This document shows, in pieces, positions 41,244 to 63,954 of a DNA stretch of 64,000 bases. The notes under the pieces are model-generated. The model saw only the letters and a program-made list of their open reading frames with translations. It did not search any database and had not been told where the DNA came from. Every line of letters begins with the position of its first letter. Positions within the stretch are counted from its first letter, which is position 1. Made by a program: the position numbers and the translations under genes. Location: NCBI RefSeq assembly GCF_016234775.1, contig NZ_JACRAH010000050.1:1-64000 (forward strand), given 5' to 3'. The stretch comes from Aquabacterium sp. (GTDB lineage Bacteria; Pseudomonadota; Gammaproteobacteria; Burkholderiales; Burkholderiaceae_C).

Positions 41244-42260
41244 ATGCCTCGCATTGCCCTGGTGATGATTGCACGCGACGAAGCGCGCTGCATCGTGCGC
41301 TGTCTGCGCAGTGTGCGTCCCTGGGTCGATGACATGATCGTGCTGGACACGGGTTCTACCGACCAGACCATTGCGCTGGCCCAGGCCGAAGGCGCTCAGG
41401 TTCACCACTTCACCTGGATCAACGATTTTGCGGCAGCGCGCAATGCCGCCCTGGCCTGCAGCGATGCAGACTGGAACCTGATCCTGGATGCCGACGAAAC
41501 GCTGGACGAAGGCGGCCCTCTCATTGCCGCATTGCGCAGTCAGCAGCCTGACTTCATCGGCCGGATCGACGTACGCAGCAGCTACACCACGGATAGCCAG
41601 CAGCCCGCCCAGGCCGCATCCAGCTGGTTGCCCCGCGTGCTGCCCAAGGGCGTTCGTTATGAGGGACGTGTGCATGAGCAACCCGTGTCCACCCTGCCGC
41701 GCCAGGATCTGGCTGTGACCGTTGGGCACGACGGCTACATGCCCGCGCAGATGCTGTCCAAAGGCAGCCGCAACCAGTCCCTGCTCAAGCTGGCGGTGGC
41801 GGAGCGACCGCAGGATGCCTACCTGCACTATCAACTTGGCAAAGATGAAGAAGTGCACGACCGCTTCGACACGGCCTGGCAGGCCTACGCGCGTAGCCTG
41901 CAATTGCTGGGGCCACAAGCCAGGCGAGATCCCCCCTGGCGACATGACCTGATCCTGCGCAGCCTGTTCACATTGAAGGCCAAAGGGCAACTGGATGAAG
42001 CCATTCACCTGGCTGAAACCGAGATGCCAAACTGGCCTGATTCGCCAGATTTTTATTTCGTGCTCGGCGACGTGCTGCTGGACCTGGCCATGGCCCAGCC
42101 CGACCAGGCTGGCGACATCCTGCCCATGGTGGAAAACGCCTGGCGCCAGTGCCTGAGCATCGGCGAGAACCCCGCGCTGGAGGGCGCCGTGCATGGCCGA
42201 GGCAGCCACCTGGCTCGCCACAATCTGGACCTGCTGCTCGGCACCATGGCCGCGATCTGA
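41244..42260 (+). CDS. Family 2 glycosyltransferase with TPR-like C-terminus
   Basis: A 338-residue protein. The first ~220 residues are a GT-A glycosyltransferase: IALVMIARDEARCIVRCL at the N-terminus, VLDTGSTDQT near 34-43 and the metal-binding LILDADETLDEGG near 78-90. The second part has helical repeat character (AYLHYQLGKDEEVHDRFDTA, DFYFVLGDVLLDLA), as in many glycosyltransferases that modify bacterial surface proteins. It is the first gene of a five-gene operon. The start at 41244 gives a natural N-terminus; the frame to 41148 is not supported. Confidence 0.88.
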   Translation: MPRIALVMIARDEARCIVRCLRSVRPWVDDMIVLDTGSTDQTIALAQAEGAQVHHFTWINDFAAARNAALACSDADWNLILDADETLDEGGPLIAALRSQQPDFIGRIDVRSSYTTDSQQPAQAASSWLPRVLPKGVRYEGRVHEQPVSTLPRQDLAVTVGHDGYMPAQMLSKGSRNQSLLKLAVAERPQDAYLHYQLGKDEEVHDRFDTAWQAYARSLQLLGPQARRDPPWRHDLILRSLFTLKAKGQLDEAIHLAETEMPNWPDSPDFYFVLGDVLLDLAMAQPDQAGDILPMVENAWRQCLSIGENPALEGAVHGRGSHLARHNLDLLLGTMAAI

Positions 42261-42350
42261 AGGGGTCCAGCCTGCTCAGGCCGGGATTAATGCACTCTTC
42301 GCGCACCTGATTGGCGGATCGGCCCTGGGCGAAAAGCCCATCATGGCAGT

Positions 42351-43814
42351 ATGAATGCACCTGCCACTTTCAATGCGCCCCCACCTGCCCTGATCGTGAT
42401 CAGCGGTGGTGCGCCGGCCTCCACCAGCCACGAGCGCGCGGCCCGTGCGGCAGCACCCGCCCTGCAAAAGCTGCTGGCTGCCCTGCAACCCGCCGACCGC
42501 GTGCTGGAGCTGGGCTGTGGCCTCGGCGAACTCGCCCAGGCCTACAAGGCGCGCCATGGCGAATGCCACTGGGTAGGCGTCAGCAGCCATCCGGTGCAGC
42601 CTGGCCAGATGCATGCATCCGTCAACCAGACGCTGAGCGTGGACCTCCACGCCAACAGCATCCTGCACATTGGCGCCAGCTTCGACCTGATCATCGTCAA
42701 CCGGCTGGAGCACCTGCCCAACGCCGCCCGCACGCTGGCCGAACTGGGCGAATTGCTGACGCCCGGCGGCAAACTGTTCGTGCTGGCCGAAAACCATGCC
42801 TGCCTGTCCGCCATGGCGCACCTCATCGAGGCTGACCCCTCCACCGGCATCGCCGCCCTGCCCGACGATCCGCTGGGCATGGACAAGGCTCACCCTCGCT
42901 TCCAGTCCCACTCCACCATCTTCAAACTGCTCCTGGACGCAGGTTGGACGCCATCGCTGGCGGACCACGTGCCCGAGCAAGGCGTGGACGACAAACTGGC
43001 CGCAGCCGTGCGCTACATGGGCGATGCACTGGGTGTCCCGCCCGGCTGCGCCGACCGCGTCCACCGCATGAAGCATTTCATCATCGGCTGTCAACGCCAG
43101 TTCGATGACGCCGTTGCGCCCTCTTCGCGTGCGTTGTTCGATGTGGTGGTGCCCACCACCAAGGAACAGCAACTGCGCGTCAACGTCGAACAATCGCCTG
43201 GCCTGCAAGAAGTACAAGCACGCATCATTTCCTACCGCCATGCGGCCACGCCAGCCGAAGCGCTCACCCAATCGCTGCAGCACGTTGGCAGCGACTGGGT
43301 GTTGCTGTGCCATCAGGACGTGTACTTTCCCAAGGGGTTTGGCCAGCGCCTCAACGCCCTGCTGTCCACCATCTCGGCCGAAGACCGCCCCAAGACACTG
43401 CTGGGCTTCATCGGCATGGGCGTCAACCGCCAGACCGAGCAGCCTGAAGCGGCCGGCTTTGTGATCGACCGCGTGAACTGTGCCGACCACGCTGAATCAG
43501 ATGCCGTTGTGTCCATCGACGAGCTGGCCCTGGTCATTGCCAAAGACTCGCTGCATCAGATCGACCCCCACATCGGCTGGCACTTGTGGGCCACCGATCT
43601 GTGCCTGACCTCGATCTGCACCCACCGCGTGTTTCCGCGCATCGTGCGCATGCCCCTGTTCCACAACACGCAAAGTGGATGGCAGCTGCCCGAATCCTTC
43701 TACGACTCGGCGGAATACATCCTGCAAAAGCATTCGTCCTTCAGCACCATCCATTCGCTGTGTGGCGTCATCGATCAGGGCTTCGTGGCCCGACACCGGA
43801 GCACCAAGCCATGA
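42351..43814 (+). CDS. Methyltransferase-glycosyltransferase fusion
   Basis: A 487-residue two-domain protein. Residues ~30-245 are a class I SAM methyltransferase with motif I VLELGCGLGELA near 50-61 and LTPGGKLFVLAENH near 135-148. Residues ~260-480 resemble the StrF-like family 2 glycosyltransferase domain: FDVVVPTTKEQQLRVNVEQS, SDWVLLCHQDVYFP near 309-322 and HIGWHLWATDLCLTS. The stop overlaps the next glycosyltransferase start (ATGA). The fused enzymes may make and methylate the same sugar; this is an inference. Confidence 0.82.
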   Translation: MNAPATFNAPPPALIVISGGAPASTSHERAARAAAPALQKLLAALQPADRVLELGCGLGELAQAYKARHGECHWVGVSSHPVQPGQMHASVNQTLSVDLHANSILHIGASFDLIIVNRLEHLPNAARTLAELGELLTPGGKLFVLAENHACLSAMAHLIEADPSTGIAALPDDPLGMDKAHPRFQSHSTIFKLLLDAGWTPSLADHVPEQGVDDKLAAAVRYMGDALGVPPGCADRVHRMKHFIIGCQRQFDDAVAPSSRALFDVVVPTTKEQQLRVNVEQSPGLQEVQARIISYRHAATPAEALTQSLQHVGSDWVLLCHQDVYFPKGFGQRLNALLSTISAEDRPKTLLGFIGMGVNRQTEQPEAAGFVIDRVNCADHAESDAVVSIDELALVIAKDSLHQIDPHIGWHLWATDLCLTSICTHRVFPRIVRMPLFHNTQSGWQLPESFYDSAEYILQKHSSFSTIHSLCGVIDQGFVARHRSTKP

Positions 43815-44848
43815 CCCAGATCACCACCCTCATCCCGGCCTACAAGAAGGAATTCCTGGGACCGCTGTTTCTGGCCCTGCGCCGCCAGAGCTTCAAGGAC
43901 TTCAAGGTCATCATCTCGGACGACAGCCCGGGCGGCGTGATCACCGACATGATCCGCAACCGCCACTGGGGTGACCTGACCGCCGAGCTGAACATCACCG
44001 TGGTCCGTGGCCCGCAGAACGCGCGCCGCAACCACGAACAGTTGCTGGACCTGTGGGCAGGCCAGACCCCGCTGGTGCACTTCAACCTGGATGACGACCT
44101 CATCTACCCGGAGTTCTACCGCACCCACGTGGCCGCGCACATGGCGGCGCCCTGCTGTGCCTCCGTCAGCCAGCGATGGCTGAGCCATGACGACGGCGTG
44201 CCCGCCTGGACCCTGCCCCTGCCGGACTTCGTGCACGAGTGCAACGGCCACGTGCTGCAACCCACCACATCCGAGCTGTTCGACAGCACCGTGGGCACCT
44301 GCCAGAACTGGCTGGGCGAGTTGAGCAACATGGTGTTCTCGGCCGAGGGCGCGGCGATGTACCCACGCCCACCCACCAATGACCTGAGCTACTACGGTCT
44401 GCTGGATGTGGGCGCCTTGCTCAACGCCAGCCAGCACCTGCCCGTGACCTTCATCCGCGAGTACCTCGGCGTGTTCCGCCAGAACGATCAGCAAACCACC
44501 ACAATCGGCACCCACAGCCACGGTGGCCGTGTGGGTTTCCTGGCCTGGGTGACCTATGCCCTGGCAGCATGGCGAGATGGCCACATCAGCCCCGAAACGG
44601 CCATTGGCGCCATCGGCAAGGCCACACAACGCATCGTGCACCACTTCCATGACGACACGGTCATGGCGGAATACTTCCACATGCTGGATACCCAGGCGGG
44701 CTCGCTGGACCAGCTCTACCTGGCCTACCGGACCTTCTGGCTGAAGCTGCTGGCCAGCAACCCAGGCACCAGCGCCGCCATGCCTGCACCCGCTGCCGCG
44801 GCTGGCAGCCGCAGCCCCCAAAGCGAGCTCGCCGACGCCACGATCTGA
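43811..44848 (+). CDS. Glycosyltransferase family 2 protein
   Basis: A 345-residue GT-A glycosyltransferase. MTQITTLIPAYKKEFLGPL at the N-terminus, VIISDDSPGG near 34-43 and the DXD-type metal site HFNLDDDLIYPEF near 90-102 are clear. A Pro/Ala-rich tail ends the protein. The ATG overlaps the upstream stop, so the operon is tightly coupled. The sugar donor is unknown. Confidence 0.9.
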   Translation: MTQITTLIPAYKKEFLGPLFLALRRQSFKDFKVIISDDSPGGVITDMIRNRHWGDLTAELNITVVRGPQNARRNHEQLLDLWAGQTPLVHFNLDDDLIYPEFYRTHVAAHMAAPCCASVSQRWLSHDDGVPAWTLPLPDFVHECNGHVLQPTTSELFDSTVGTCQNWLGELSNMVFSAEGAAMYPRPPTNDLSYYGLLDVGALLNASQHLPVTFIREYLGVFRQNDQQTTTIGTHSHGGRVGFLAWVTYALAAWRDGHISPETAIGAIGKATQRIVHHFHDDTVMAEYFHMLDTQAGSLDQLYLAYRTFWLKLLASNPGTSAAMPAPAAAAGSRSPQSELADATI

Positions 44849-44863
44849 GCAGGACCCACGCGC

Positions 44864-46042
44864 ATGAACACCAAGCCCCCCATCTATGTGACCCAGCCGG
44901 ACTTGCCGCCGCTGGAGGAGTTCATGCCCTATCTCCAGCAGATCTGGGACAGCAAGATCCTCACCAATGGCGGGCCCTTCCACAAACAACTGGAAACCGA
45001 ACTCGCCGAGTACCTGGGCGTCAACTACATCTCGCTGTTCACGAATGCCACGATCGCGCTTGTCACCGCCCTGCAATCGCTGCGCATCAGCGGCGAGGTC
45101 ATCACGACGCCGTATTCGTTTGTGGCCACGGCCCATTCGCTGCTGTGGAACGGCATCAAACCCGTGTTCGCCGACATCGACCCGAACACCATGAACCTGG
45201 ATCCGGCCAGCATCGAGGCTGCCATCACACCGCAGACCACGGCCATCATGCCGGTGCACTGCTATGGCCGCCCGTGCGACGTGGAAGCCATCCAGCGCAT
45301 TGCCGACGACTACAACCTCAAGGTCATCTACGACGCAGCGCATGCCTTCGGCGTGAAGCAGCACGGCCAGAGCATCCTGCAACATGGCGACCTGTCCATA
45401 CTGAGCTTCCACGCGACCAAGGCCTTCAACACATTCGAAGGCGGCGCGATCATCAGCCCGGATGCCCGTACCAAGCAACACATCGATCACCTCAAGAACT
45501 TCGGCTTCGTCAACGAAACGACCGTGGTGGCTACCGGCATCAACGGCAAGATGAGCGAGCTCAATGCCGCACTCGGCCTGCTGCAACTCAAGCACGTGGG
45601 CAAGGCCATTGCGCGCCGGCGGGAAATCGATGCGCTGTATCGCCAGTTGCTGACGGGCGTCAAAGGCATTCGCGTGCTGGAGCCGGCCGCCGACACGCAA
45701 GCCAATTACTCCTACTTCCCCATTCTGGTCGAGCCGGACTATCCGCTCAGCCGCGACGTGATCTACCAGCAGATGAAGGATGCCGGCATCTATGGCCGAC
45801 GCTACTTCTACCCGCTGATCTCGGATTTCCCGATGTACCGCGGTCTGCCCTCGGCCCACGCCAGCAACCTGCCAGTGGCAAAAGCCACCTCGTCGAAAGT
45901 CATCTGCCTGCCTATCTACCCCGCGCTCAGCGACGAGGAGGTGGCCAGCGTAGCGGCCCTCATTCGCCATCCTCAACTGCCTCAGATCGCGCCTGCACCT
46001 GCACCAAGCCTGGACGCGCATCACGCAGGCACACCAGTCTGA
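44864..46042 (+). CDS. DegT/DnrJ/EryC1-family sugar aminotransferase
   Basis: A 392-residue PLP-dependent aminotransferase that makes amino sugars from nucleotide-linked keto sugars. The PLP lysine is Lys186 in SFHATKAFNTFEGG; Asp157 in IYDAAHAFG contacts the pyridine nitrogen. ILTNGGPFHKQLETELAEYL at 32-51 is typical. It follows the glycosyltransferase by 15 bases. The product is probably an amino-deoxy sugar for surface or flagellar glycan. No 4,6-dehydratase or epimerase gene is in the window, so the precursor comes from elsewhere. Confidence 0.93.
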   Translation: MNTKPPIYVTQPDLPPLEEFMPYLQQIWDSKILTNGGPFHKQLETELAEYLGVNYISLFTNATIALVTALQSLRISGEVITTPYSFVATAHSLLWNGIKPVFADIDPNTMNLDPASIEAAITPQTTAIMPVHCYGRPCDVEAIQRIADDYNLKVIYDAAHAFGVKQHGQSILQHGDLSILSFHATKAFNTFEGGAIISPDARTKQHIDHLKNFGFVNETTVVATGINGKMSELNAALGLLQLKHVGKAIARRREIDALYRQLLTGVKGIRVLEPAADTQANYSYFPILVEPDYPLSRDVIYQQMKDAGIYGRRYFYPLISDFPMYRGLPSAHASNLPVAKATSSKVICLPIYPALSDEEVASVAALIRHPQLPQIAPAPAPSLDAHHAGTPV

Positions 46043-46066
46043 ACATCGGCCGAACAGGAACACACC

Positions 46067-46846
46067 ATGCCGTATTGCTGCGTATGCGACCAGACCGTCT
46101 CCGCCTGGCTGCCATTCCCCCATGCCCACAACCGCAGCCCGCTGATGCAGGTACTCGACACGGTGGGTTCAGACCCCGATGTGTTCATGTGCCCGACATG
46201 TGGCTGCCATGACCGTGACCGCCATCTGTGGTTGTACATGCGGGCTTCGGGCGTCAAGAGCCAGCTGAAAGGCGCCAGCATCCTGCACATGGCGCCGGAA
46301 CCTCATCTGGAGGTCCTGATCGAGGCGGCGCAACCAGCCAACTACATCCGTGGCGATCTTTATCCACAGCGCCCCCATTTGCAGCGCGTGGATCTGGAAG
46401 ATCTTCCCTTTGAGGACAACAGCCTGGACCTCATCATCTGCAACCACATCCTTGAGCATGTGCACCATCCCGATGTCGCGCTCTCGGAGATCCATCGCGT
46501 ACTCAAACCCGGCGGCATCGTGATCGCCCAAACGCCCTATGCGCCCAACCTCAAGCACACGCTGGAGATGAAGACCGTGCCGGATTCGCAAACGGCCCAT
46601 CTGCTGTACGGACAAGCCGATCATGTACGTCTCTTCGGCGACGACATCAGGGACTACTTCCACGCAGCCGGACTGCAAGGAGACCTGCTGGCTCACCAGG
46701 CCTTGTTGCCAGGGGTGACCAAGACTGAGTTCGGTTGCAACGAGCGCGAGCCCTTCTTTGTGTTCTGGAAGGCCCGGCAGACGGTGGCAAACGATGGGGC
46801 TGACGTGCGCGATGAAGCGGCGTCATCACTGGCGGAAGCGGTATAG
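46067..46846 (+). CDS. Class I methyltransferase with N-terminal cysteine-pair motif
   Basis: A 259-residue SAM-dependent methyltransferase. The N-terminus has PYCCVCDQ and, 37 residues on, FMCPTCGCHDRDRHLW, which looks like a small zinc ribbon. The Rossmann part has GASILHMAPEPHLEVLI, NYIRGDLYPQ, LPFEDNSLDLIICNHILEHV near 110-129 and VLKPGGIVIAQTPY. Last gene of the plus-strand glycosylation operon; a strong terminator follows. Confidence 0.88.
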   Translation: MPYCCVCDQTVSAWLPFPHAHNRSPLMQVLDTVGSDPDVFMCPTCGCHDRDRHLWLYMRASGVKSQLKGASILHMAPEPHLEVLIEAAQPANYIRGDLYPQRPHLQRVDLEDLPFEDNSLDLIICNHILEHVHHPDVALSEIHRVLKPGGIVIAQTPYAPNLKHTLEMKTVPDSQTAHLLYGQADHVRLFGDDIRDYFHAAGLQGDLLAHQALLPGVTKTEFGCNEREPFFVFWKARQTVANDGADVRDEAASSLAEAV

Positions 46847-46879
46847 CGCCACCGATTGCAATCAATCCGACTCATGAGC

Positions 46880-46905
46880 AAGGCCCGCACGCAGCGGGCC
46901 TTTTC
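46880..46905 (+). terminator. Intrinsic terminator between the two glycosylation operons
   Basis: AAGGCCCGC, ACGCA loop, GCGGGCCTT, then TTTC: a 9-base perfect stem and T-run on the plus strand. On the opposite strand the stem is preceded by a T-run mirror (TTG), so it may serve both convergent operons. Confidence 0.85.
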
Positions 46906-46926
46906 AATGGTGCATGCCTGTCGGCA

Positions 46927-47688
46927 TCACACCAGAACGCGGCTGCGCATCTTGAACAAGGGACGGTTCATGAACTCCCCGACCTGGTTGTTGCGCGGCA
47001 GGTTGTCCTCACTGATGGGCTCGTAGACACGGCTGACGGGATTGGGCACGGTGACTTCTTCGATGACCCAGCTGTCACCAACACCCTGCGCCACGAAGTC
47101 GATCAACGCTGCCTTCTCGCCGCCGTCGAACAAGGGGCACCGCACATCGCCCTTCCAGTTGAAGCCCAGTTGCAGCACGAGCACGCGCGTGAGGCCAGCC
47201 ATGTGGCGCAAACTTTTTATCATCTGCTCGCGGGCTGCATCCACGCTCAGGCTCTGATCACCGAAGTCATCACCCAGGTGGTGCAGCACGTTGAGGCAGT
47301 AGGTCACGTCGAAGGTCTCGGAGATCGGCGCCAGGAAATCAAAATAGCAAGCGTTCATGCGCAGGCGATCAGCCAGGCCGGCCTGCTCGGCGCAATGGGC
47401 CACAAATGCCGCATGCTCCTGGTTGCCCTCGTAGCAGGTCACATGCTGCGCACCGCTGTCGAGCGCGCCAAAGCTGAAATAGCCTGTGTTGGCGCCAATG
47501 TCCAGCACGCGCGCACCCAGCAGCGGCAGCGCCCGGTCGAAATAGGTCTGGCGCGCCACCTCCAGCTTGCCGGCAGGCAGATCACTGGTATCGCCCAGCA
47601 GCTTCGCGACCAGCGGATGCACCAGTTGGTAATTCGCATGCTTGCTGCGTTGCAGGTAGAGATCCTTGAGGGAAGGCGTCGAGGGCAT
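46927..47688 (-). CDS. Class I SAM methyltransferase
   Basis: A 253-residue methyltransferase of the small-molecule or sugar O-methyltransferase kind. Motif I is VLDIGANTGYFSFGAL near 61-76, followed by CYEGNQEHAAFVAHC and CLNVLHHLGDDFGD near 130-143. It ends the minus-strand glycosylation operon, 26 bases after the ATP-grasp gene, so it probably methylates a sugar or an amide made in that operon. Substrate unknown. Confidence 0.88.
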   Translation of the reverse strand: MPSTPSLKDLYLQRSKHANYQLVHPLVAKLLGDTSDLPAGKLEVARQTYFDRALPLLGARVLDIGANTGYFSFGALDSGAQHVTCYEGNQEHAAFVAHCAEQAGLADRLRMNACYFDFLAPISETFDVTYCLNVLHHLGDDFGDQSLSVDAAREQMIKSLRHMAGLTRVLVLQLGFNWKGDVRCPLFDGGEKAALIDFVAQGVGDSWVIEEVTVPNPVSRVYEPISEDNLPRNNQVGEFMNRPLFKMRSRVLV

Positions 47689-47714
47689 GGTGGTCTCGTC
47701 CGTTCAATGGTTGT

Positions 47715-48794
47715 TCAGTGGCAGGCTTGCAGTGCCCAAGTGTCGTCACGCGCGTAAACGTCATGAACCGACAACAGCCGCTCACGCTCTTGCAGACTGA
47801 TGGCCTGCCCTGCAGGATGCACGACACCACCGGGCTGGTGAGCGCCATAAGCCCAGGCATAACAGGCGTTTTCCGGCCGCTGTGCGGTGATCGTCGGCGT
47901 ATCGAAACCCTGGTCGCGAGCAAACAATCGCAGGATGTCAGGGCATACATCGAGGGCGAGTTGCAGCGGCCCCCAGAAACGTGGATTCACTTCGATGTAG
48001 TACAGCCGGCCCCGAGATGCAATCACTTCCAGCATGAAGGCACCGTGGTAGCCCCTGGCGCGCAGGCCCTGGAACAGATTCAACTCATCCAGACCAGGAT
48101 TGGCGCAAGGCCGGGCCAGCACGATGGACTTGCCACCGCCTTGCTGCATCAGGTTGACTTGCCAGAAGGATGCAAATTCGCCATCACGGGCGAGATATCC
48201 ACACAGATAGTGGCTTTGCCCAGTGACGAAGTCCTGCGCGAAATAGGCGGCGCGATCCAGCCCGTGGAGCGCCTGTTGCAGATCATCATCCGTGCGGCAC
48301 AGCAAGGGGTAGAGCACTCGCCCCTGGCTCACATTCTCATGCGGCTTGAGCACACAAGGCGCTTGCCAATGGCCTTCAGGCTGCGTGCCCGGCAGATACA
48401 GATCGGCGCACAGGCTGGTCATCAGGGCCTGGCTGCTGTGCTTGCCGGTCAGTTGCTCGTAGATGGCAGGCTCTGGCAAGCCAATGTACAGACTACTACC
48501 GGCCAGCTCGGCCCGATGGCTCAGAACAAAGTGATTGATGAACTCGGTGGTAGGGCAATAGACCAGCTCACCACCCAGGCTGCCCGCCAGTTGGCGCAGC
48601 CAGGGTACGGTCACCAGCTGATCCAGGCGATTGAACACCACCCGCTCGGCCCAACGTGTGCGGTGGATGGCGTCAGCTGCACCGGCTGCCACGATGACAA
48701 AGGGCAAACGCGCCTGCTCGAAGAACCGACACAGCGCCACCACGGCACGATCGTTGTGGCCGGAAAAAAGCAGGAAGCGGCGCTCATCAGCCAT
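47715..48794 (-). CDS. ATP-grasp family protein
   Basis: A 359-residue ATP-grasp ligase-like enzyme. The N-terminal Rossmann-like part starts RRFLLFSGHNDRAVVALCRF. ATP-binding lysine in APCVLKPHENVSQGRV near 145-160, and the metal-binding end GAFMLEVIASRGRLYYIEVN leading to PRFWG near 248-272. This resembles carbamoyl-phosphate-synthase-like and D-Asp/peptide ligases. It lies 8 bases after the CgeB-like gene. In a glycosylation locus it might attach an amino acid or acyl group to an amino sugar through an amide bond; this is speculative. Confidence 0.85.
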   Translation of the reverse strand: MADERRFLLFSGHNDRAVVALCRFFEQARLPFVIVAAGAADAIHRTRWAERVVFNRLDQLVTVPWLRQLAGSLGGELVYCPTTEFINHFVLSHRAELAGSSLYIGLPEPAIYEQLTGKHSSQALMTSLCADLYLPGTQPEGHWQAPCVLKPHENVSQGRVLYPLLCRTDDDLQQALHGLDRAAYFAQDFVTGQSHYLCGYLARDGEFASFWQVNLMQQGGGKSIVLARPCANPGLDELNLFQGLRARGYHGAFMLEVIASRGRLYYIEVNPRFWGPLQLALDVCPDILRLFARDQGFDTPTITAQRPENACYAWAYGAHQPGGVVHPAGQAISLQERERLLSVHDVYARDDTWALQACH

Positions 48795-48802
48795 CAGGCA
48801 CC

Positions 48803-50350
48803 TCAGGCAACCAGTCTGGCTGATGGCTCGGGTGCCAGTTGAGGCAAGTCATCCGGCACCGAGAAGTCCGCCTGCATGGTGCGCGCCAGCGTGCGTTCGT
48901 GCGCCGAGGTTTCCACCTTGATCAGCAGCACGTTCATGGTGGCGGCCTGCTCGCGCTCACACACCTCGTTGCGCTCGTTCATGTACTCGAAGCGGTCCAC
49001 GTGGAAGCGATGCTCGAACCATCCGACCTGCCAGAACATCTCGCTGAAGTACAGCCAGGTCTTTTCGTTGAAAGCACGGCGATGGGTCGGATCCTGCCAG
49101 GCACGCATGGCCTGCTCATGTGATACCTGAACAATCAGCTTGCCGTGGGTCTTGAGCATGGCCAGACAGTTGCCCATCAACATGGGCAAGTCAGTGGCCT
49201 GCTCCAGGGCCGTGCTGGCGTAGATCAGGTCCACGCTGGCCGGCTGTACATCGATGGGGCCGGTCTGGGGTGTTTCACCTACGAAGGGCAAACCGATGGG
49301 CTGCGACAGATCGCCGATCACATCGGGCTGAACCAACTCGTCAACATCCACATTCAACCAGCCTGGCAGATAGTCGTTGCCGGAGCCGACGTGCACCCGC
49401 TTGGGGCTCCAGGGCGCCGACGGGCGTCGCGCCTGATGCTCACGGCCAAAGCCTGCAGCGAAAGCCAGCAGATCGGCATAGGCTTCAATCGGGTCCGCAG
49501 CTTCGAAGGCCTTGACCGCAGCGCGGGCCTCCTCGAAGAACGCGGGGGTTGCGAAATGCTCGCTGAAATATGCCTCCAGCTGATCCTCGCTCAGCCACAG
49601 CACGCTGTGCTCGAAGGCGGCGTGTGGGCGCGTCTGCTGGCGTCGCTCCGAGATGACGGGCGTCCCCAGTGACAGGCAGTGCGAGGCACGAGCCTGCTCA
49701 AACCGGCTGGTCTCGTAAAAATGTGCGTTGAACACAGCCTTGGCCTGCACGATATAGGCGTCGCGCTCAGGGCCATACAAAGCACCGTCGAACATGCTGA
49801 CCTGCACACCCGTTGATTCGATGCGCTGGATCATCGCGCGGCGACGCTCGTTCATGCTGCCGATGAACAGCAAGTCGATGGGTCTATCCTCCAGCGGGAT
49901 AGGTTCAGCCTGCTGCAGATAGGGTGCATGCAGGAAGGGCACCACCATCACTTCATCGGGGTGACGGGAATAGGCCTGGATGTTGTCATGGTCATAGTCC
50001 ACCACGGCAGATGTCTGCAGGAGCGCCAGATAGTCGCGCGACACCGCCGCACCGCCCAGCCCCAGTTGCTCCAGGTTGACAAACACGCAGCTGTAACGCT
50101 CACGCAATTCAGCCTCGAAGCCCAGATGGGCCCCGAAAATGAAGTTGACGGCGTCATGGCGCAGACGGTTCTTGCCCATGGAGACTTCTGCCCCCATGCG
50201 CCGGAACTGGTGCCGGAAGTAGCGGGCCTGGTCCAGGAAGCCCAACGAGTGCACGTAGCCCTTGGGTTGAACGATGCTCAAGTGGATGCGGGGCAGTTCA
50301 TTCATGACGGCGCTCCGGTTTCCGCTGGAGGAGACAAGTGAGGGAATCAT
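48803..50350 (-). CDS. CgeB-like glycosyltransferase fused to a methyltransferase-like domain
   Basis: A 515-residue protein. The first ~320 residues resemble CgeB/GT4-type glycosyltransferases: IHLSIVQPKGYVHSLGFLDQ, RPIDLLFIGSMNERRRAMI near 158-176 and QARASHCLSLGTPVISERR. The C-terminal ~180 residues look like a class I methyltransferase (KRVHVGSGNDYLPGWLNVDV, then VDLIYASTALEQ and MLKTHGKLIVQVSHEQA), with a G-S-G instead of a G-x-G-rich loop. The start at 50350 has AAGGAG 8 bases upstream; an internal ATG at 50305 is also possible. Confidence 0.82.
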   Translation of the reverse strand: MIPSLVSSSGNRSAVMNELPRIHLSIVQPKGYVHSLGFLDQARYFRHQFRRMGAEVSMGKNRLRHDAVNFIFGAHLGFEAELRERYSCVFVNLEQLGLGGAAVSRDYLALLQTSAVVDYDHDNIQAYSRHPDEVMVVPFLHAPYLQQAEPIPLEDRPIDLLFIGSMNERRRAMIQRIESTGVQVSMFDGALYGPERDAYIVQAKAVFNAHFYETSRFEQARASHCLSLGTPVISERRQQTRPHAAFEHSVLWLSEDQLEAYFSEHFATPAFFEEARAAVKAFEAADPIEAYADLLAFAAGFGREHQARRPSAPWSPKRVHVGSGNDYLPGWLNVDVDELVQPDVIGDLSQPIGLPFVGETPQTGPIDVQPASVDLIYASTALEQATDLPMLMGNCLAMLKTHGKLIVQVSHEQAMRAWQDPTHRRAFNEKTWLYFSEMFWQVGWFEHRFHVDRFEYMNERNEVCEREQAATMNVLLIKVETSAHERTLARTMQADFSVPDDLPQLAPEPSARLVA

Positions 50351-50362
50351 GTTGTTTCTCCT

Positions 50363-52315
50363 TCAGCTCAAATGATCGGGGGACAGACCCTGGGCCTGGC
50401 GATCAGCCATGCGCCACAGCAGTTCACCAAAATCGCGGGCATAGGCATCACTGTCAAACAGAGGCGCCTCGTCGCGGGCGCGGTGCAGGCTGGCCCTGAT
50501 GGCGTCACGCTGGGGTTGGTCTGCGGCCAACGCCTGTACTTTGGCCATGTAGCCATCCGCATCGTGGCTGATTAGATCAGGCAGCCCGACGTTGTGCAAC
50601 AGGCTGGCGGCCACACGTTGCGCGAAGCTGTGACCTGCATAGGTCACCACCGGCACGCCGGCCCACAAGGCATCGCTGACGGTCGTGTGACCATTGCAGG
50701 GCCAGGCGTCCAGATAGATATCTGCCAGCGCAAAACGGCTGATGTGTTCGCTGATATGGACCTTGGGGGCGAACACCAGGCGTTGCGGATCGATCCCTCG
50801 CTTGGAAGCCTCCTGGCGCAAAACGTCCTCGGCCGAGCCCAGCCAGTTCAACAGCCACAACACGGCGTTGGGAATTCGATGCAGGAGTTCGCACCAGACG
50901 TCGAACACCTCGGGTGAAATCTTGAAGGGCTGATTGAACCCGCACAACACGATCGCATCGTCGGGCAAGCCGTGCGCCGATCGGCTATCTGGCTGAGGCA
51001 GAGGGCGCTTGCGATCGTTGGGCTGGTAGCAATGCGGCATCAAGGCCAGCTTCTCGGTGTAATGCGGTGCTTCGCTCAAAGGGCTGACCAGGGCATCGCC
51101 GATCATGTAGTCGATATACGTGGCGCCACTGGTGCCGGGGAAGCCCAGATAGGTGACCTGCACCGGTGCCGGCCGATAGGCAAAGATGCCCAGGCGACCA
51201 TTGACCGTGTGGCCCTTGAGGTCGACCAGCACATCGATCTGATCGGCCCTGATCTGCTCGGCTACTTGCCGATCGCTCCAGTCGCCCACCTCCACGAACT
51301 GTGTGGACACCGCCTTGATACGCCGACGCATAGGGCTGTCTTCATCAGGGCCATGCGAATAGAGGTGCAACTCGAAGCGACCGGGATCCAGTTTCTCCAG
51401 GACCTCGGCCAGCAAGATGGTGGTGGCGTGATGGTGAAAGTCGCAAGAGACCATGCCCACGCGCAACCGATCCGGCATGGCACGCAGCGGCTGGGGTGCC
51501 AGCGGCTGGACGCCATGCGCATAGTAATTGGCACAGGCCTGAGCGGCCTTCAGCTGCCGGCCTACGTCACCGTTGAGGGTCACGGCGGCAAACACGGAAG
51601 ACCAGCAGATCGAATCGGGCTTCAAGTCATCCAGCAATCGGTTGACCTCGCCCATCTCGCGCTCGGCATCGTCCCACTGGCACAGCTCACGGCGGATGAA
51701 CAACATCAGGCTGCGTGCGGCCAGATCACCACCGGCCAGGTCCATGGCCAGCGCGGTGGTCAGGCATTCGATGGCCTCGGCCTTCATCCCCACGGCGTTG
51801 AAGCACAAACCCAGTCGGTAGTGGCTCATCGCGTGTGTCACATCCAGGGACAACGCTTCGAACAGCACGTTGATGCCTTCTTTATAGCGTTGTGCACTGA
51901 AGAGTGTGTTGCCCAGTATCTGCAGGTACTCGGCACTGGGGCGCAAGCCTTCCGGCATCTCCATCATGAAGGAGGCTGCCTCGCTGTGGCGACCGACTTG
52001 CGTCAGACACTCTCCCATGAACTGACGTGCCAGCAGATTGGCAGGCTCCTGCTCCAGGATGCGGCGCGTGTGCTCGATGGCGCGATCGGCTTGTTGAGAC
52101 CTCAACAAGGCACGGGCCAGATTCAGCCGAAACAAGGTGTCAGAGGGTGCCGCCTTGCAGGCCTTGTCGAACTCCTTGACCGCCCCCTGCCACTCCCCCT
52201 TCTTGCTGAAAGCCAGGCCGTGCTCCCAATGTTGGTGAGCCTGCTTCAGAAGTCGTGCCTGCTGGCCGAAAACAGCTTGTGTCGAGGTTTGCATGGCGGA
52301 TGACACCCATTTCAT
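50363..52315 (-). CDS. SPINDLY/OGT-type O-linked N-acetylglucosaminyltransferase with TPRs
   Basis: A 650-residue protein. The N-terminal ~210 residues are TPR repeats (e.g. HWEHGLAFSKKGEWQGAVKE and MSHYRLGLCFNAVGMKAEAI). The rest is a GT41 catalytic domain: RLRVGMVSCDFHHHATTILL near 279-298, VLVDLKGHTVNGRLGIFAYR, PVQVTYLGFPGTSGATYIDY, VLCGFNQPFKISPEVFDVW and DAWPCNGHTTVSDALWAGVP. Bacterial members glycosylate Ser/Thr of surface proteins, including flagellins. It is the first gene of the minus-strand operon and lies next to the flagellins. The start at 52315 or 52294 is unclear, as neither has a good ribosome site. Confidence 0.92.
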   Translation of the reverse strand: MKWVSSAMQTSTQAVFGQQARLLKQAHQHWEHGLAFSKKGEWQGAVKEFDKACKAAPSDTLFRLNLARALLRSQQADRAIEHTRRILEQEPANLLARQFMGECLTQVGRHSEAASFMMEMPEGLRPSAEYLQILGNTLFSAQRYKEGINVLFEALSLDVTHAMSHYRLGLCFNAVGMKAEAIECLTTALAMDLAGGDLAARSLMLFIRRELCQWDDAEREMGEVNRLLDDLKPDSICWSSVFAAVTLNGDVGRQLKAAQACANYYAHGVQPLAPQPLRAMPDRLRVGMVSCDFHHHATTILLAEVLEKLDPGRFELHLYSHGPDEDSPMRRRIKAVSTQFVEVGDWSDRQVAEQIRADQIDVLVDLKGHTVNGRLGIFAYRPAPVQVTYLGFPGTSGATYIDYMIGDALVSPLSEAPHYTEKLALMPHCYQPNDRKRPLPQPDSRSAHGLPDDAIVLCGFNQPFKISPEVFDVWCELLHRIPNAVLWLLNWLGSAEDVLRQEASKRGIDPQRLVFAPKVHISEHISRFALADIYLDAWPCNGHTTVSDALWAGVPVVTYAGHSFAQRVAASLLHNVGLPDLISHDADGYMAKVQALAADQPQRDAIRASLHRARDEAPLFDSDAYARDFGELLWRMADRQAQGLSPDHLS

Positions 52316-52640
52316 AAGGAAGAGGTGCCGTCAGTCTAGACATCAGCGGTTCCCATGGGGATCGGAGATGAACAGCAAAGCAATGTCATTTCTCTCGACA
52401 CTATTTCACGAAAGCTGGTTTTGCAAATCACTCAAGTCCACACAAAGGGGCGCCGATATGCAAAGCAACGGTCTTCAAGAATGGGTCCGTGGTCCGGTTA
52501 GCCGGCCGATGTTTCTGGTGGCAAGACGCCACTTCGGGCAATGCGGTTGACTAGCGACGGTCTGGCAGTGCGGTAGCTGTATCACCGCGTTTACATGCCG
52601 GCGCTATCTGCCGGGAGTTTTGCAACCATAGGAGAGCACC
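52316..52640. other. Gap between the OGT gene and flagellin 1
   Basis: This 325-base gap holds the divergent promoters. The plus strand carries the sigma28-like site at 52432-52459 and the AGGAGAG ribosome site at 52630-52636. CCGG-TTAG-CCGG near 52495 is a short palindrome. A 61-codon frame from 52368 is probably not a gene. I find no sigma28-like site facing the OGT gene. Confidence 0.6.
52432..52459 (+). promoter_or_regulatory. Sigma28-like promoter of flagellin 1
   Basis: TCAAGTCC at 52432-52439, a 12-base spacer, then GCCGATAT at 52452-52459. The -10 differs from the FliA consensus GCCGATAA by one base. The leader before the ATG would be about 175 bases. Confidence 0.7.
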
Positions 52641-53486
52641 ATGCCTTCAGTTATCAATACCAACCTGCTGTCGATGAACGCACAGCGCAACACCAGCGTT
52701 TCGCAAGCTTCGCTGACCACTTCCATGCAACGCCTGTCCTCCGGCTTGCGCGTCAACTCCGCCAAGGACGACGCCGCCGGTCTGGCGATTGCAGAACGCA
52801 TGAATGCACAGGTTCGCGGCATGAACGTGGCCATGCGCAATGCCAACGACGGCATCTCGCTGGCGCAAACCGCAGAAGGTGCACTGGCCAAGGTCGGCGA
52901 CGCCCTGCAACGTATGCGTGAACTGGCTGTCCAGGCTCGTAACGCATCCAACAGCTCCAGCGACAAGGACTCCCTGAACAAGGAATTCCAGCAACTGTCG
53001 TCTGAAATCAAGCGTGTGATCGGTGGCACCACCTTCAACGGTCAGACCATCATCGGCTCCAACGCCGGTGGCAAGGACTTCCAGATCGGTGCCAATACGA
53101 CCAGCAATGACACCATCACGGTCACCACCGCCAACATGAACAACGATGCCAGCATCACGGCTGTGACTGGCGCGGCATCGAAGATCGACAGCCAGCAAAA
53201 TGCGACGGCCATCAAGACGGTGATCGACAACATTGACGGCGCCATCGACAAGGTCAACTCCGAACGCGCCATGTACGGCGCCACGCAGAGCCGCTTTGAC
53301 TCGGTGATCTCGAACCTGCAGGTGTCGGTCGAGAACCAATCCGCCGCTCGCAGCCGCATCATGGATGCCGACTTCGCGACAGAAACGGCCAACCTGTCAC
53401 GAGCCCAGATCCTGCAACAGGCTGGCAACGCGATGATTGCGCAGGCCAACCAGCTGCCACAGCAGGTTCTGTCTCTGCTGCGCTGA
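52641..53486 (+). CDS. fliC: Flagellin 1
   Basis: A 281-residue filament protein. The conserved N-terminal D0/D1 block (INTNLLSMNAQRN, SMQRLSSGLRVNSAKDDAAG, LAIAERMNAQVRGMNVAMRN) and the C-terminal block (SRIMDADFATETANLSRAQI, LQQAGNAMIAQANQLPQQVL) are complete. The centre (about 130-195) is short and Ser/Thr/Asn-rich, so the D2/D3 outer domains are missing. This exposed region is a likely site for O-glycosylation by the neighbouring OGT. The AGGAGAG site gives strong translation. Confidence 0.97.
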   Translation: MPSVINTNLLSMNAQRNTSVSQASLTTSMQRLSSGLRVNSAKDDAAGLAIAERMNAQVRGMNVAMRNANDGISLAQTAEGALAKVGDALQRMRELAVQARNASNSSSDKDSLNKEFQQLSSEIKRVIGGTTFNGQTIIGSNAGGKDFQIGANTTSNDTITVTTANMNNDASITAVTGAASKIDSQQNATAIKTVIDNIDGAIDKVNSERAMYGATQSRFDSVISNLQVSVENQSAARSRIMDADFATETANLSRAQILQQAGNAMIAQANQLPQQVLSLLR

Positions 53487-53500
53487 TATATCAGTGCGTA

Positions 53501-53520
53501 TCGCCGAAAAAACTCGGCGA
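53501..53520 (+). other. Hairpin after flagellin 1
   Basis: TCGCCGA, an A-rich 6-base loop, and TCGGCGA: a perfect 7-base stem 14 bases after the stop codon and just before the terminator. It may protect the 3' end. Confidence 0.5.
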
Positions 53521-53541
53521 TCTCCTCTGTCAACGCACTTC

Positions 53542-53567
53542 AAGCCGCCTTCGGGCGGCTTTTCCTT
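53542..53567 (+). terminator. Flagellin 1 terminator 1
   Basis: AAGCCGCC-TTCG-GGCGGCTT with TTCC following: an 8-base GC-rich stem closed by a stable UUCG tetraloop and a short T-run. Confidence 0.88.
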
Positions 53568-53581
53568 TTCCAGTTTGGAAT

Positions 53582-53603
53582 AGGCCCCTGATAGGGCCTT
53601 TAT
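53582..53603 (+). terminator. Flagellin 1 terminator 2
   Basis: AGGCCC-CTGATA-GGGCCT followed by TTATT, a second, smaller terminator 15 bases after the first, as a backup. Confidence 0.65.
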
Positions 53604-53651
53604 TCGCACTTTTGGTTCTCGAAAAAACTCCGAACATCCATACCACTGGCT

Positions 53652-53691
53652 GAAGGAATTTTTTTGGACTCCTTCGGCGACAAGCTGAAGG
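53652..53691 (+). other. Mutually exclusive hairpins before flagellin 2
   Basis: TCCTTC at 53670-53675 can pair either with GAAGGA at 53652-53657 or, as CCTTC, with GAAGG at 53687-53691. A T-run sits in the first loop. This lies about 45 bases before the flagellin 2 start. I see no matching sigma28 site here. Confidence 0.35.
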
Positions 53692-53735
53692 TCGGCGACA
53701 TCGCCGGAAGTCTGACGAATTTTTAGGAGTGCGTT

Positions 53736-54584
53736 ATGCCTCAGACGATCAATACGAACTTGAACTCGCTGAACGCTCAGCGCAACCTCAACACGTCGCA
53801 GATGTCACTGTCCGTATCGATGCAACGGCTGTCATCGGGTCTGCGAGTCAACTCCGCCAAGGATGACGCTGCCGGCCTGGCTATCGCCGAACGGATGAAT
53901 GCGCAAGTCAAGGGCATGAACGTCGCGGCACGCAATGCCAACGACGGCATCTCCCTGGCGCAAACTGCTGAAGGCGCCCTGGGCAAGGTCTCCGACGCCC
54001 TGCAGCGTATGCGGGAGCTGACGGTTCAGTCCCGCAACGCCTCGAACAGCTCCAGCGACAAAGATTCCCTCAACAAGGAATTCAAGCAGCTGTCGATGGA
54101 AATCGTTCGGGTGCTGGGTGCCACGACCTTCAACGGCAAGGACATCCTGGCCTCCGGCGCCGGCGCCCTGGACTTCCAGATCGGCGCGAACACCACAACG
54201 AACGACCTGATCACGATCTCGACGGCCAACATGCTGACCAACGCCAGCATCACGGCGGTCACCGGCAACACTGTCTCGATCGGCAGCGACGCCAACACCA
54301 CCGCGCTCAAGAATGTGATCGACTCGATCGATGGTGCGCTCGACAAGATCAACTCCGAACGCGCGGTCTACGGTGCCACGCAGAGCCGCTTCGACGCCAT
54401 CATCTCCAACCTGCAGGTGGCGGCTGAAAACCAGACCGCTGCACGCAGCCGGATCATGGATGCCGACTTCGCTGTAGAAACCGCCAACCTGTCGCGGGCT
54501 CAGATCCTGCAACAGGCCGGCAACGCGATGGTGGCGCAGGCCAACCAGTTGCCACAGAACGTGCTGAAGCTGCTGGGCGGTTGA
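53736..54584 (+). CDS. fliC: Flagellin 2
   Basis: A 282-residue flagellin closely similar to flagellin 1; the two are nearly the same over the first 125 and last 75 residues and differ mainly in the Ser/Thr-rich centre (e.g. LGATTFNGKDILASGAGALD against IGGTTFNGQTIIGSNAGGKD). It too lacks outer domains. An AGGAG site precedes the ATG. Unlike flagellin 1 it has no recognisable sigma28-like promoter directly upstream, and two terminators separate the genes, so its transcription needs another signal. Confidence 0.97.
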   Translation: MPQTINTNLNSLNAQRNLNTSQMSLSVSMQRLSSGLRVNSAKDDAAGLAIAERMNAQVKGMNVAARNANDGISLAQTAEGALGKVSDALQRMRELTVQSRNASNSSSDKDSLNKEFKQLSMEIVRVLGATTFNGKDILASGAGALDFQIGANTTTNDLITISTANMLTNASITAVTGNTVSIGSDANTTALKNVIDSIDGALDKINSERAVYGATQSRFDAIISNLQVAAENQTAARSRIMDADFAVETANLSRAQILQQAGNAMVAQANQLPQNVLKLLGG

Positions 54585-56334: not shown

Positions 56335-57705
56335 ATGGCTACCGTAGGCTCAGCATCAAGAGTTGACGGCGTTGACCTTCAGTTGATGGTCAACGCTTCG
56401 GCCTTTGCGCGCCCGCAAGCAGGTACAGCCACAGCTCGGACCACCGATGCCGAGCCCGACACCCGCATTTCGTCTGCCGGCAAGTTGCGCAGCGCCACAT
56501 CAGCCGTGCTGGACGCTGCTGCCCAGCTCAACAAGAGCCAGACCTGGCAGGCGACCAAGGCCACCTCGAACAACGAGGCCCTGGTTCAAGCTGTAAGCGA
56601 CAAAGCCGCACCAGGCGACTACGCCATCAGCGTGGACGCCCTCGCCACCGCGCAAACCACCACGTCGGCCAGCTTTTCATCGCTGTCCACGGTGGTGGGC
56701 ATAGGGACGCTCGACTTGCAACTGGGCACTTGGAACAGCTCTACCAGCACCTTTGCCACCAATCCGAACTGGCCCAAAGCCAGTGTCACCTTTGGTCCCA
56801 AGGACACCTCACTTGAGCACATCCGAGACAAGATCAATGCGGCCGGCGTCGGCGTGATTGCCACCGTGGTCAGTGATGCGACCGGATCCAGACTGGTTCT
56901 GCGCTCCACCTCAACGGGCTCAGGCAACGGTTTCAAGGTAGAAGCCGAACCCACCAACAAAGGCGACGACAAGGCCGCCCAAACCCTGGCCGCCATGGGA
57001 TTCAACCCGGCACAGGTCAGTGGCGGTGCGGCCTTGACACAACCCGGCCAGGACGCCAGGATCAAAATCGACGGACGAGAGGTTCAGTCTGGTCAAAACC
57101 TGATTGAAGACGAACCAACTGGCCTGACCTTGCGGCTCAATGGCCAAGAGGGCGGCTCTGCGACGATCCATGTCGAAACCGACACACAGGCCATGGCCAA
57201 GGACATCCAGTCTTTCGCGCACGCGTACAACAACATGGTGTCGCAACTGGCCCAATCCGATCAGTCGCCCGATGACAGCAGCGTGCTGGATGCCCGTGCC
57301 ATCCAGCAAAGCATGCAGGAAGCGTTCAGTTCAAAGGGCAAAACGCTCACGCCGTCAGGCTCACAGTTCAAGGACATCGGAATGCAATTGGCCCCCGATG
57401 GACTGCTTTCCATCGACACAGCCAGATTGAACCAGTCGCTTGAACAAGATCCTGGCAAGGTTGAACAACTCTTCGACGCTGCCGGTGGAAAAGAACAAGC
57501 CTCTGGCATCGCCGCGCGGCTGCTGGCCCTGTCAGGCAGGCAGGCCGAATCCAGCGAGCAGACCAGCGCGAACGGACCAGGCGCTCAGCAGCGTAGCGAA
57601 ACCGCGTCAACCGCCGGAACGCTCTACAGACAGCGCCTGCTTGAACAGTACGCCGCGTCGTCCACGCACGAGGACGAAAACGCGATGTCGGCAAACGAGG
57701 CCTGA
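56335..57705 (+). CDS. Divergent, shortened FliD-like protein
   Basis: A 456-residue paralogue of FliD. The middle is clearly related: GDYAISVDALATAQTTTSA and LEHIRDKINAAGVGVIATVV, then SDATGSRLVL, and FAHAYNNMVSQLAQ. The N-terminal VGSGLxxxxIVxxLV motif is degraded (SRVDGVDLQLMVNASAF) and the C-terminal coiled-coil is shortened to a charged tail (YRQRLLEQYAASSTHEDENA). Those parts are the ones buried in the filament tip in true caps, so this may not cap filaments and could be an adhesin-like or regulatory partner. It is in the flagellar regulon by position and promoter. Confidence 0.82.
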   Translation: MATVGSASRVDGVDLQLMVNASAFARPQAGTATARTTDAEPDTRISSAGKLRSATSAVLDAAAQLNKSQTWQATKATSNNEALVQAVSDKAAPGDYAISVDALATAQTTTSASFSSLSTVVGIGTLDLQLGTWNSSTSTFATNPNWPKASVTFGPKDTSLEHIRDKINAAGVGVIATVVSDATGSRLVLRSTSTGSGNGFKVEAEPTNKGDDKAAQTLAAMGFNPAQVSGGAALTQPGQDARIKIDGREVQSGQNLIEDEPTGLTLRLNGQEGGSATIHVETDTQAMAKDIQSFAHAYNNMVSQLAQSDQSPDDSSVLDARAIQQSMQEAFSSKGKTLTPSGSQFKDIGMQLAPDGLLSIDTARLNQSLEQDPGKVEQLFDAAGGKEQASGIAARLLALSGRQAESSEQTSANGPGAQQRSETASTAGTLYRQRLLEQYAASSTHEDENAMSANEA

Positions 57706-63757: not shown

Positions 63758-63834
63758 GCGGCTGTAGCTCAGTTGGATAGAGTACTTGGCTACGAACCAA
63801 GGGGTCGTGGGTTCGAATCCTGCCAGCCGCACCA
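63758..63834 (+). tRNA. tRNA-Arg (anticodon ACG), copy 1
   Basis: 77 bases including an encoded CCA. The acceptor stem GCGGCTG pairs with CAGCCGC, the anticodon stem CTTGG/CCAAG holds the loop CTACGAA with anticodon ACG (read as ICG after A34 editing), and the T-loop GTTCGAATC is normal. Decodes CGU, CGC and CGA. Confidence 0.98.
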
Positions 63835-63877
63835 GTTATCACTCATCGTGAAGAACCGGTAGCCGAGAACATTTTTA

Positions 63878-63954
63878 GCGGCTGTAGCTCAGTTGGATAG
63901 AGTACTTGGCTACGAACCAAGGGGTCGTGGGTTCGAATCCTGCCAGCCGCACCA
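63878..63954 (+). tRNA. tRNA-Arg (anticodon ACG), copy 2
   Basis: Identical in sequence to copy 1 over all 77 bases, separated from it by 43 bases that contain no promoter I can see, so the two are likely cut from one transcript. Confidence 0.98.

What the first reader, a model, noticed from the sequence alone, without database searches (positions are those of the whole stretch)
41244..54584. Flagellin glycosylation island of nine genes next to two flagellins
Two convergent operons (five plus-strand genes, four minus-strand genes) hold three or four glycosyltransferases, up to four methyltransferase domains, a DegT aminotransferase, an ATP-grasp enzyme and an OGT. The OGT and its operon abut flagellin 1. 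Both flagellins are short with Ser/Thr-rich centres. A methylated amino-sugar glycan on flagellin is the simplest reading. The combination, with ATP-grasp and fusion enzymes, is one I do not recognise as described.
Basis: inference. Interest (0 to 1): 0.7.

Follow-up and report, generated by a model that had tools for sequence, protein, structure and literature searches.

The report
Flagellin glycosylation island, swappable acyl cassette
This bacterium carries a block of genes beside its flagellin genes that most likely makes an unusual amino sugar and attaches it to the flagellum; the genes thought to cap that sugar differ between close species, in one case including genes predicted to make a sulfonated acid.

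The parts
41244..42260 (+). GT2-family glycosyltransferase (GT2a)
   Evidence: PF00535 E 9.4e-13; weak TPR_11 match; SunS-like match far below cut-off; relatives beside OGT/flagellin in other genera
42351..43814 (+). methyltransferase domain fused to a possible GT-A-like domain (MT-GT)
   Evidence: PF13489 E 4.6e-12; C-terminal profile match to 2qgi, E 0.0012
43811..44848 (+). GT2-like glycosyltransferase (GT2b); start codon overlaps the MT-GT stop
   Evidence: PF00535 E 3e-4, below cut-off; sequence at the overlap
44864..46042 (+). DegT/DesI-like sugar aminotransferase, predicted to make a dTDP-4-amino-4,6-dideoxyhexose
   Evidence: PF01041 E 3e-104; best NCBIfam DesI E 3e-94, 316 bits, cut-off 650 not reached; nearest PDB sequence 2po3
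46067..46846 (+). methyltransferase (MT2)
   Evidence: PF08241 E 2.4e-16
46927..47688 (-). methyltransferase (MT3), second gene of the exchangeable cassette
   Evidence: PF08242 E 9.1e-7; relatives beside the ATP-grasp gene in 11 of 11 loci
47715..48794 (-). ATP-grasp ligase, predicted to join a carboxylic acid to the sugar amine; first gene of the exchangeable cassette
48803..50350 (-). possible GT-B-like domain fused to a methyltransferase domain (CgeB-MT; the CgeB name is recalled)
   Evidence: Methyltransf_23 in 17 of 20 homologues, Glyco_trans_1_2 in 4 of 20; structure model failed, pLDDT 34
50363..52315 (-). TPR + GT41 (OGT-like) protein glycosyltransferase, predicted to start the glycan on flagellin Ser/Thr
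   Evidence: PF13844 E 5.9e-95 plus TPR families; XcOGT and human OGT among PDB sequences matched
52641..53486 (+). flagellin 1, presumed acceptor
   Evidence: PF00669 and PF00700 over cut-off
53736..54584 (+). flagellin 2, presumed acceptor
   Evidence: 79% identical to flagellin 1

Best explanation
A flagellin glycosylation island. The TPR-GT41 protein (50363-52315) starts an O-glycan on flagellin Ser/Thr in the cytoplasm; the GT2 and GT-like domains extend it. RmlA/RmlB elsewhere in the genome supply dTDP-4-keto-6-deoxyglucose (RmlB found, RmlA assumed); DegT converts it to a 4-amino-4,6-dideoxy sugar. The ATP-grasp enzyme (47715-48794) then amide-links a still unknown carboxylic acid to that amine, and MT3 methylates the acid or the sugar. 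ATP-grasp + MT3 sit in a slot where the two operons converge; related species carry other acylation genes there or nearby, so the cap on a conserved glycan scaffold changes between species. Shown by sequence or model: gene content, neighbourhood, ATP-grasp fold, in-place exchange in one species pair. Inferred: every reaction, the 4-position, the order, and that flagellin is the acceptor.
For: Gene families; OGT/CgeB-MT beside flagellin in other genera; DegT + ATP-grasp + MT3 together in 11 of 11 loci, 2 of them within 5-8 kb of type IV pilin genes, which fits a sugar-making module better than a flagellin-acting one; ATP-grasp fold; in nine Aquabacterium islands the ATP-grasp/MT3 pair (5 of 9) gives way to other acylation genes: NeuD/PglB/VioB-family acetyltransferase over its cut-off (G433, 173.2 vs 160.8 bits), hexapeptide acyltransferase pair (G430), other ATP-grasp (G417), ATP-grasp + ComAB (G159); replacement in place between 87% and 91% identical flanks (G415 vs G159); G159 groups with ATP-grasp/MT3-bearing G415 and G414 (UFBoot 100 on the concatenation); RmlB over cut-off in the genome.
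Against: No experimental evidence. DegT reaches no curated NCBIfam cut-off, so a 4- versus 3-amino product is open. The acid and the methylation site are unknown; MT3's profile matches are diverse (PRMT6, CmoB, WbdD). G417's slot is empty and its ATP-grasp sits at the other end of the island; G433 keeps only DegT and OGT of the frame. Three of the five ATP-grasp/MT3 islands (G409, G414, G408) lie on contigs that end before any flagellin. In the Acidobacteria MAG L068 the triplet has no glycosyltransferase in view. The donor of no glycosyltransferase can be assigned by sequence. The genome is a draft, 94.68% complete, 68 contigs.
Confidence: 0.7

Rival explanations
1. Plain methylated amino-sugar glycan: the ATP-grasp gene builds something else, and the sugar amine stays free or is acetylated by an enzyme encoded elsewhere.
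For: 16 partial hexapeptide-acetyltransferase matches exist in the genome, none over the NeuD cut-off.
Against: ATP-grasp, DegT and MT3 lie together in 11 of 11 loci from (by name) three phyla, and sister species have recognised acyltransferase genes in place of the pair.
Confidence: 0.15
2. The island glycosylates another surface structure (pilin, LPS or exopolysaccharide), and its place beside flagellin is incidental.
For: The DegT-ATP-grasp-MT3 triplet lies within 5-8 kb of pilin genes in two other bacteria, so this module is not tied to flagellin.
Against: None of the nine proteins matched a polymerase, flippase or lipid-linked sugar transferase family; TPR-GT41 architecture; the OGT gene starts 325 bases from flagellin 1 and its relatives adjoin flagellin in other genera.
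Confidence: 0.08
3. A sub-variant of the best explanation: the ATP-grasp enzyme adds an amino acid or short peptide (compare the taurine-Ala-Gly cap on Fuc3N of C. difficile type B flagellin) rather than a hydroxy acid, and MT3 N-methylates it.
Against: Fold similarity does not fix the acid; the sister cassette in G159 is predicted to use a hydroxy acid, sulfolactate, though with an ATP-grasp not detectably related by BLAST.
Confidence: 0.35

Closest known systems
Viosamine island of Pseudomonas syringae pv. tabaci (vioA, vioM, vioT, vioS, vioB, vioR, acp); passages of PMC3927599 read
   Same: Sugar aminotransferase, methyltransferase, glycosyltransferase and an N-acylation step for a 4-amino sugar on flagellin.
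   Different: There N-acylation goes through VioB with VioS, VioR and an acyl carrier protein; the window island has no match to these and has an ATP-grasp protein instead. A TPR-GT41 starter is not part of that description.
Clostridioides difficile type B flagellin locus (GT1-GT3 and CDR20291_0244-0247) with sulfonated peptidylamido-glycan; passages of PMC5207246 and PMC5207245 read
   Same: ATP-grasp gene and sugar aminotransferase gene in a flagellin locus; the ATP-grasp mutant lacks the capped amino sugar; the cap is sulfonated.
   Different: Cap is taurine-Ala-Gly on Fuc3N; different transferases. The window has no sulfonate gene; only its relative G159 has ComAB.
Caulobacter crescentus FlmG; passages of PMC7591256 read
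   Same: N-terminal TPR flagellin-binding part and C-terminal GT-B transferase acting on flagellins in the cytoplasm, like the layout of 50363-52315.
   Different: FlmG uses pseudaminic acid; the window enzyme's donor is unknown, and sequence kinship with FlmG was not tested.
Shewanella oneidensis sfmABCDE; passages of PMC3765264 read
   Same: ATP-grasp_4 protein and methyltransferase in one flagellin-modification operon; an O-methylated 236-264 Da substituent.
   Different: Substituent sits on a putative nonulosonic acid; different gene set.
Enterobacteriaceae flagellin glycosylation islands; passages of PMC4875605 read
   Same: Highly variable islands with aminotransferases, methyltransferases and acyl modifications.
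   Different: The terms ATP-grasp, carbamoyl and sulfolact do not occur in that text.

Membership tests
flagellin glycosylation island | glycosyltransferase and sugar-synthesis genes beside flagellin, conserved as neighbours | tested here: met
   flagellin within the fetched 20 kb in 12 of 17 loci chosen by the CgeB-MT protein alone
flagellin glycosylation island | flagellin carries the glycan and loses it in mutants | not testable with these tools
   needs mass spectrometry and mutants
GT41 (OGT-like) | GT41 domain with TPRs | tested here: met
   PF13844 319 bits vs cut-off 25, several TPR families over cut-off
FlmG class | TPR part binds flagellin; sequence kinship with FlmG | not tested
   only the domain layout was compared, from passages
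ATP-grasp superfamily | ATP-grasp fold | tested here: met
ATP-grasp superfamily | curated Pfam ATP-grasp model over cut-off | tested here: not met
   window protein: no family; 3 of 12 relatives match ATP-grasp_3 and 2 of 12 ATPgrasp_Ter, weakly
ATP-grasp superfamily | acidic/Asn metal-binding motif E...ExNxR (motif recalled) | tested here: met
   E256, E268, N270, R272 invariant in 12 of 12
VioA/DesI 4-aminotransferases | curated equivalog cut-off | tested here: not met
   DesI 316 of 650 bits, PseC 239 of 423.5 bits; DesI is only the best match
viosamine island | VioB-type acyltransferase with ACP/KAS III/reductase genes | tested here: not met
   no such match among the nine gene products
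phosphosulfolactate pathway (relative G159, not the window) | ComA equivalog | tested here: met
   TIGR03849 289 vs 280 bits, PF02679 E 2e-85
phosphosulfolactate pathway (relative G159, not the window) | ComB | tested here: inconclusive
   PF04029 152.8 vs 26.4 bits met; TIGR00298 120.3 vs 175.05 bits not met
phosphosulfolactate pathway (relative G701, not the window) | ComA and ComB curated cut-offs | tested here: not met
   TIGR03849 255.8 vs 280 bits with an ORF start that I may have set too late; TIGR00298 107.9 vs 175.05 bits

The most novel reading that the evidence does not exclude
ATP-grasp ligases are a general, exchangeable replacement for the N-acetyltransferase step (VioB/PglD/PseH) in flagellar amino-sugar pathways, letting bacteria cap the same glycan with very different acids. 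In one Aquabacterium species (G159) and, independently, in a distant pseudaminic-acid flagellar cluster (G701) the acid is 3-sulfolactate made on site by a ComA-ComB fusion, giving a flagellum capped with a sulfolactyl amide and so negatively charged. My literature searches found no such glycan.
Probability: 0.45. Interest if true: 0.75.

Novelty: new variant of a known kind. Interest (0 to 1): 0.57.

Why it matters
Flagellin glycans bear on filament assembly, immune recognition, phage attachment and antigenic variation. If right, this names a gene slot in which the terminal chemistry of a flagellar glycan is exchanged while most of the rest is conserved: G415 and G159, whose frame proteins are mostly 92-96% identical (GT2b 85%), are a natural experiment. 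It offers a role for orphan ATP-grasp genes in flagellar clusters, and it predicts a new use of sulfolactate, which I know (recalled) from coenzyme M, Bacillus spores and sulfosugar breakdown.

Tried and rejected
Window ATP-grasp against PDB sequences: the single protein gave only chance-level matches to NohD (best E 0.081); the 12-sequence profile gave only weak matches to ATP-grasp enzymes, best E 0.013. The CgeB-MT profile (20 sequences) matched no PDB chain at E 0.01 and its AF2 model failed (pLDDT 34, three sequences), so its N-terminal half stays weakly assigned. MT3 gave no specific function; a carboxy-SAM (CmoB-type) role was considered from sub-cut-off matches but not tested. A sigma-28-type pattern gave 0 matches in the window; no promoter or terminator pattern was found in 46700-47000.

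ComA elsewhere: of 399 family genomes 10 have ComA. G159's lies in the flagellin island; the 9 other places, fetched (some cut by contig ends), showed no match to my island or flagellin queries beyond ComA/ComB. So sulfolactate genes in flagellar islands are rare in this family. Of 369 class genomes 20 matched the ComAB query; I fetched places in 6 of these 20: one flagellar (L157), two in polysaccharide-like clusters (L160, L162), three in other or uninformative contexts (L158, L159, L161).

Literature: flagellin + sulfolactate + glycosylation: 0 papers; flagellin + phosphosulfolactate synthase: 0; (2 of 3 terms, 46 papers, 15 listed; sulfolactyl, sulfolactoyl, sulfolactic or sulpholactic acid; 5 papers): none on sulfolactate in glycans by title and start of abstract; (22,902 papers, 20 listed) showed one paper that mentions phosphosulfolactate, not opened. 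The library lacks most subscription journals. The Burkholderia cenocepacia flagellin sugar and Xanthomonas gig genes are recalled only; one search's listing showed no gig paper.

Dropped rows: of 21 strong CgeB-MT places outside the window, 4 (G067, G078, G102, G118; match at a contig end or on a short contig) were not fetched widely. L044's ORF extraction failed, and L044, L053, L055 and L128-L130 are not in alignment A3. L017 carries one stop inside its match. Island-type DegT was cut at 71% identity; G419 and G241 (45% and 43%) were looked at and set aside as surface-polysaccharide clusters.
Full report
What is there. The nine genes and two flagellins are intact and at the stated places. 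Downstream lie FliD, a second FliD-like gene, FliS, FliT and a YcgR-like PilZ protein; upstream are a 3-dehydroquinate synthase gene and a dGTPase-like gene (name by recall). The window is contig 33 of a 4.27 Mb draft genome. The closest relatives of the ATP-grasp protein in named genomes are in three Aquabacterium MAGs at 75-80% identity, so I call the source Aquabacterium-like.

Neighbourhood in other genera. The CgeB-MT protein matched in 34 of 200 family genomes. Of 17 places fetched with wide flanks because of this protein alone (same-genus G159 included), 12 hold a flagellin within the fetched 20 kb, in 11 of these 12 with a GT41 relative too. Three more hold FlhDC and/or MotAB-CheY genes (L046, L051, L059); two show neither (L044, L052). 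The OGT/CgeB-MT core is therefore a feature of flagellar loci, while the sugar genes around it differ (for example FdtA beside DegT in L045; GHMP kinase and E1-type dehydrogenase genes in L042).

The triplet. A scan of one genome for each of 84,980 species with the ATP-grasp alignment confirmed 11 loci. All 11 hold DegT, ATP-grasp and MT3 together: Aquabacterium x3, Ideonella, Desulfopila, Comamonas x2, Variovorax, Pseudorhodoferax, an Acidobacteria MAG and Fulvimonas. Flagellin is in the locus in 5 of 11 (L062, L065, L066, L067, L069); FlhDC-MotAB in 1 (L063); 2 lie on short contigs without flagellin (L060, L061). In Fulvimonas and Desulfopila type IV pilin genes lie 5-8 kb away (L070, L064); in the Acidobacteria MAG I saw neither. 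A module that works beside different acceptors most simply makes a sugar donor. The family search itself found 7 of 200 genomes with any match to the ATP-grasp protein, 3 of them strong.

The exchangeable slot. All 42 genomes of the genus match DegT somewhere, but the island type (71% identity or more) is in 9 of 42. I looked at all nine islands; three (G409, G414, G408) are cut by contig ends. ATP-grasp+MT3: 5 of 9 (G000, G415, G409, G414, G408). G159: ATP-grasp_3-like protein (below the Pfam cut-off), ComA-ComB fusion and a TylF-type methyltransferase. G417: an ATP-grasp_4 protein with a Gfo/Idh oxidoreductase, placed at the other end of the island, the slot itself being empty. G430: two hexapeptide acyltransferases after MT2. 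G433, whose island keeps only DegT and OGT of the frame: a NeuD/PglB/VioB-family sugar acetyltransferase over its cut-off (173.2 vs 160.8 bits) beside DegT. That recognised amino-sugar acyltransferases stand where the pair is absent is the strongest pointer to what the pair does.

In-place exchange. G415 and G159 share 87% and 91% identical DNA up to within 25 bases of the end of MT2 and 57 bases of the end of CgeB-MT (G159 coordinates); between them 2.0 kb (MT3, ATP-grasp) in one stands for 3.6 kb (ATP-grasp_3, ComAB, TylF) in the other. Their OGT, MT-GT and FliD proteins are 95-96% identical, CgeB-MT and DegT 92%, GT2b 85%. Trees group G159 with G415 and G414, which carry ATP-grasp+MT3 (UFBoot 100 on seven genes, 96 and 99 on parts of the two operons, 75 on aroB+dGTPase, where G159 has only 78 residues). 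The exchange also moved the cassette from the OGT strand to the DegT strand.

Sulfolactate. The G159 fusion scores above the ComA equivalog cut-off and strongly for the ComB Pfam family, but below the ComB NCBIfam cut-off. A second full-length fusion (45% identity) is in G701, a genome of another family of the class; it scores below both curated cut-offs (I may have set its start too late). It lies 14 bases from an ATP-grasp gene, in a cluster with PseB, PseC and PseI over their cut-offs, PseF just below and PseG below cut-off, an MptE-like protein and a methyltransferase, about 11 kb from a flagellin (53% identity) with FliD- and FliS-like genes between. PseH, the enzyme that acetylates the amine made by PseC (recalled), has no match at E <= 0.001 in that single-contig genome, although the same search rings weakly in 13 of 14 control genomes. 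The ATP-grasp proteins of the window, G159 and G701 do not match one another by BLAST at E 0.01, while G701's resembles G417's (E 2e-7), so several ATP-grasp lineages seem to have been recruited. That sulfolactate ends up on the sugar is inference.

How it probably works. RmlB is present in the genome (RmlA not checked). DegT would give a dTDP-4-amino-4,6-dideoxyhexose; ATP-grasp would amide-link an acid to the amine; MT3 would methylate. The TPR-GT41 enzyme would start the chain on flagellin, with GT2a, GT2b, MT-GT and CgeB-MT extending and methylating it. The acid is unknown; a hydroxy acid and an amino acid are both open.

Against known systems. The layout resembles the viosamine island of P. 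syringae, the type B locus of C. difficile, FlmG of Caulobacter and sfm of Shewanella, all read in passages only. They show that acyl-capped amino sugars and ATP-grasp genes in flagellin modification are known in kind. I found no paper on sulfolactate in flagellin or surface glycans in the held library (listings only). Hence: new variant of a known kind.

Noticed in passing
window 56335-57705: A second FliD-like gene (FliD_N and FliD_C over cut-off) directly after FliD and before FliS; also present in the G159 and G415 loci L040 and L062.
   Followed up: partly
L064 541-11894 and L070 3281-11827: The DegT-ATP-grasp-MT3 triplet lies 5-8 kb from type IV pilin genes in Desulfopila and Fulvimonas, with large membrane-protein-like ORFs between (PMT-type in L064), suggesting pilin decorated with a similar sugar.
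   Followed up: partly
L160 1677-9986 and L162 8451-9783: ComA genes in surface-polysaccharide-like clusters; L160 with a PAPS-reductase-domain protein (possible sulfite source), a histidine phosphatase, two ATP-grasp proteins and asparagine synthase; L162 with a histidine phosphatase.
   Followed up: partly
L136 9446-11778 (G241) and L135 9388-10488 (G419): A 42-44% DegT relative in what looks like a surface-polysaccharide cluster; in G241 it is beside an ATP-grasp protein 36% identical to that of G417's flagellin island.
   Followed up: no
L068 8804-12024: Stand-alone DegT-ATP-grasp-MT3 triplet in an Acidobacteria MAG, after an ORF that looks prephenate-dehydratase-like (recalled), with no glycosyltransferase seen nearby.
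   Followed up: no
window 63758-63954: Two tRNA-Arg(acg) genes in tandem.
   Followed up: no
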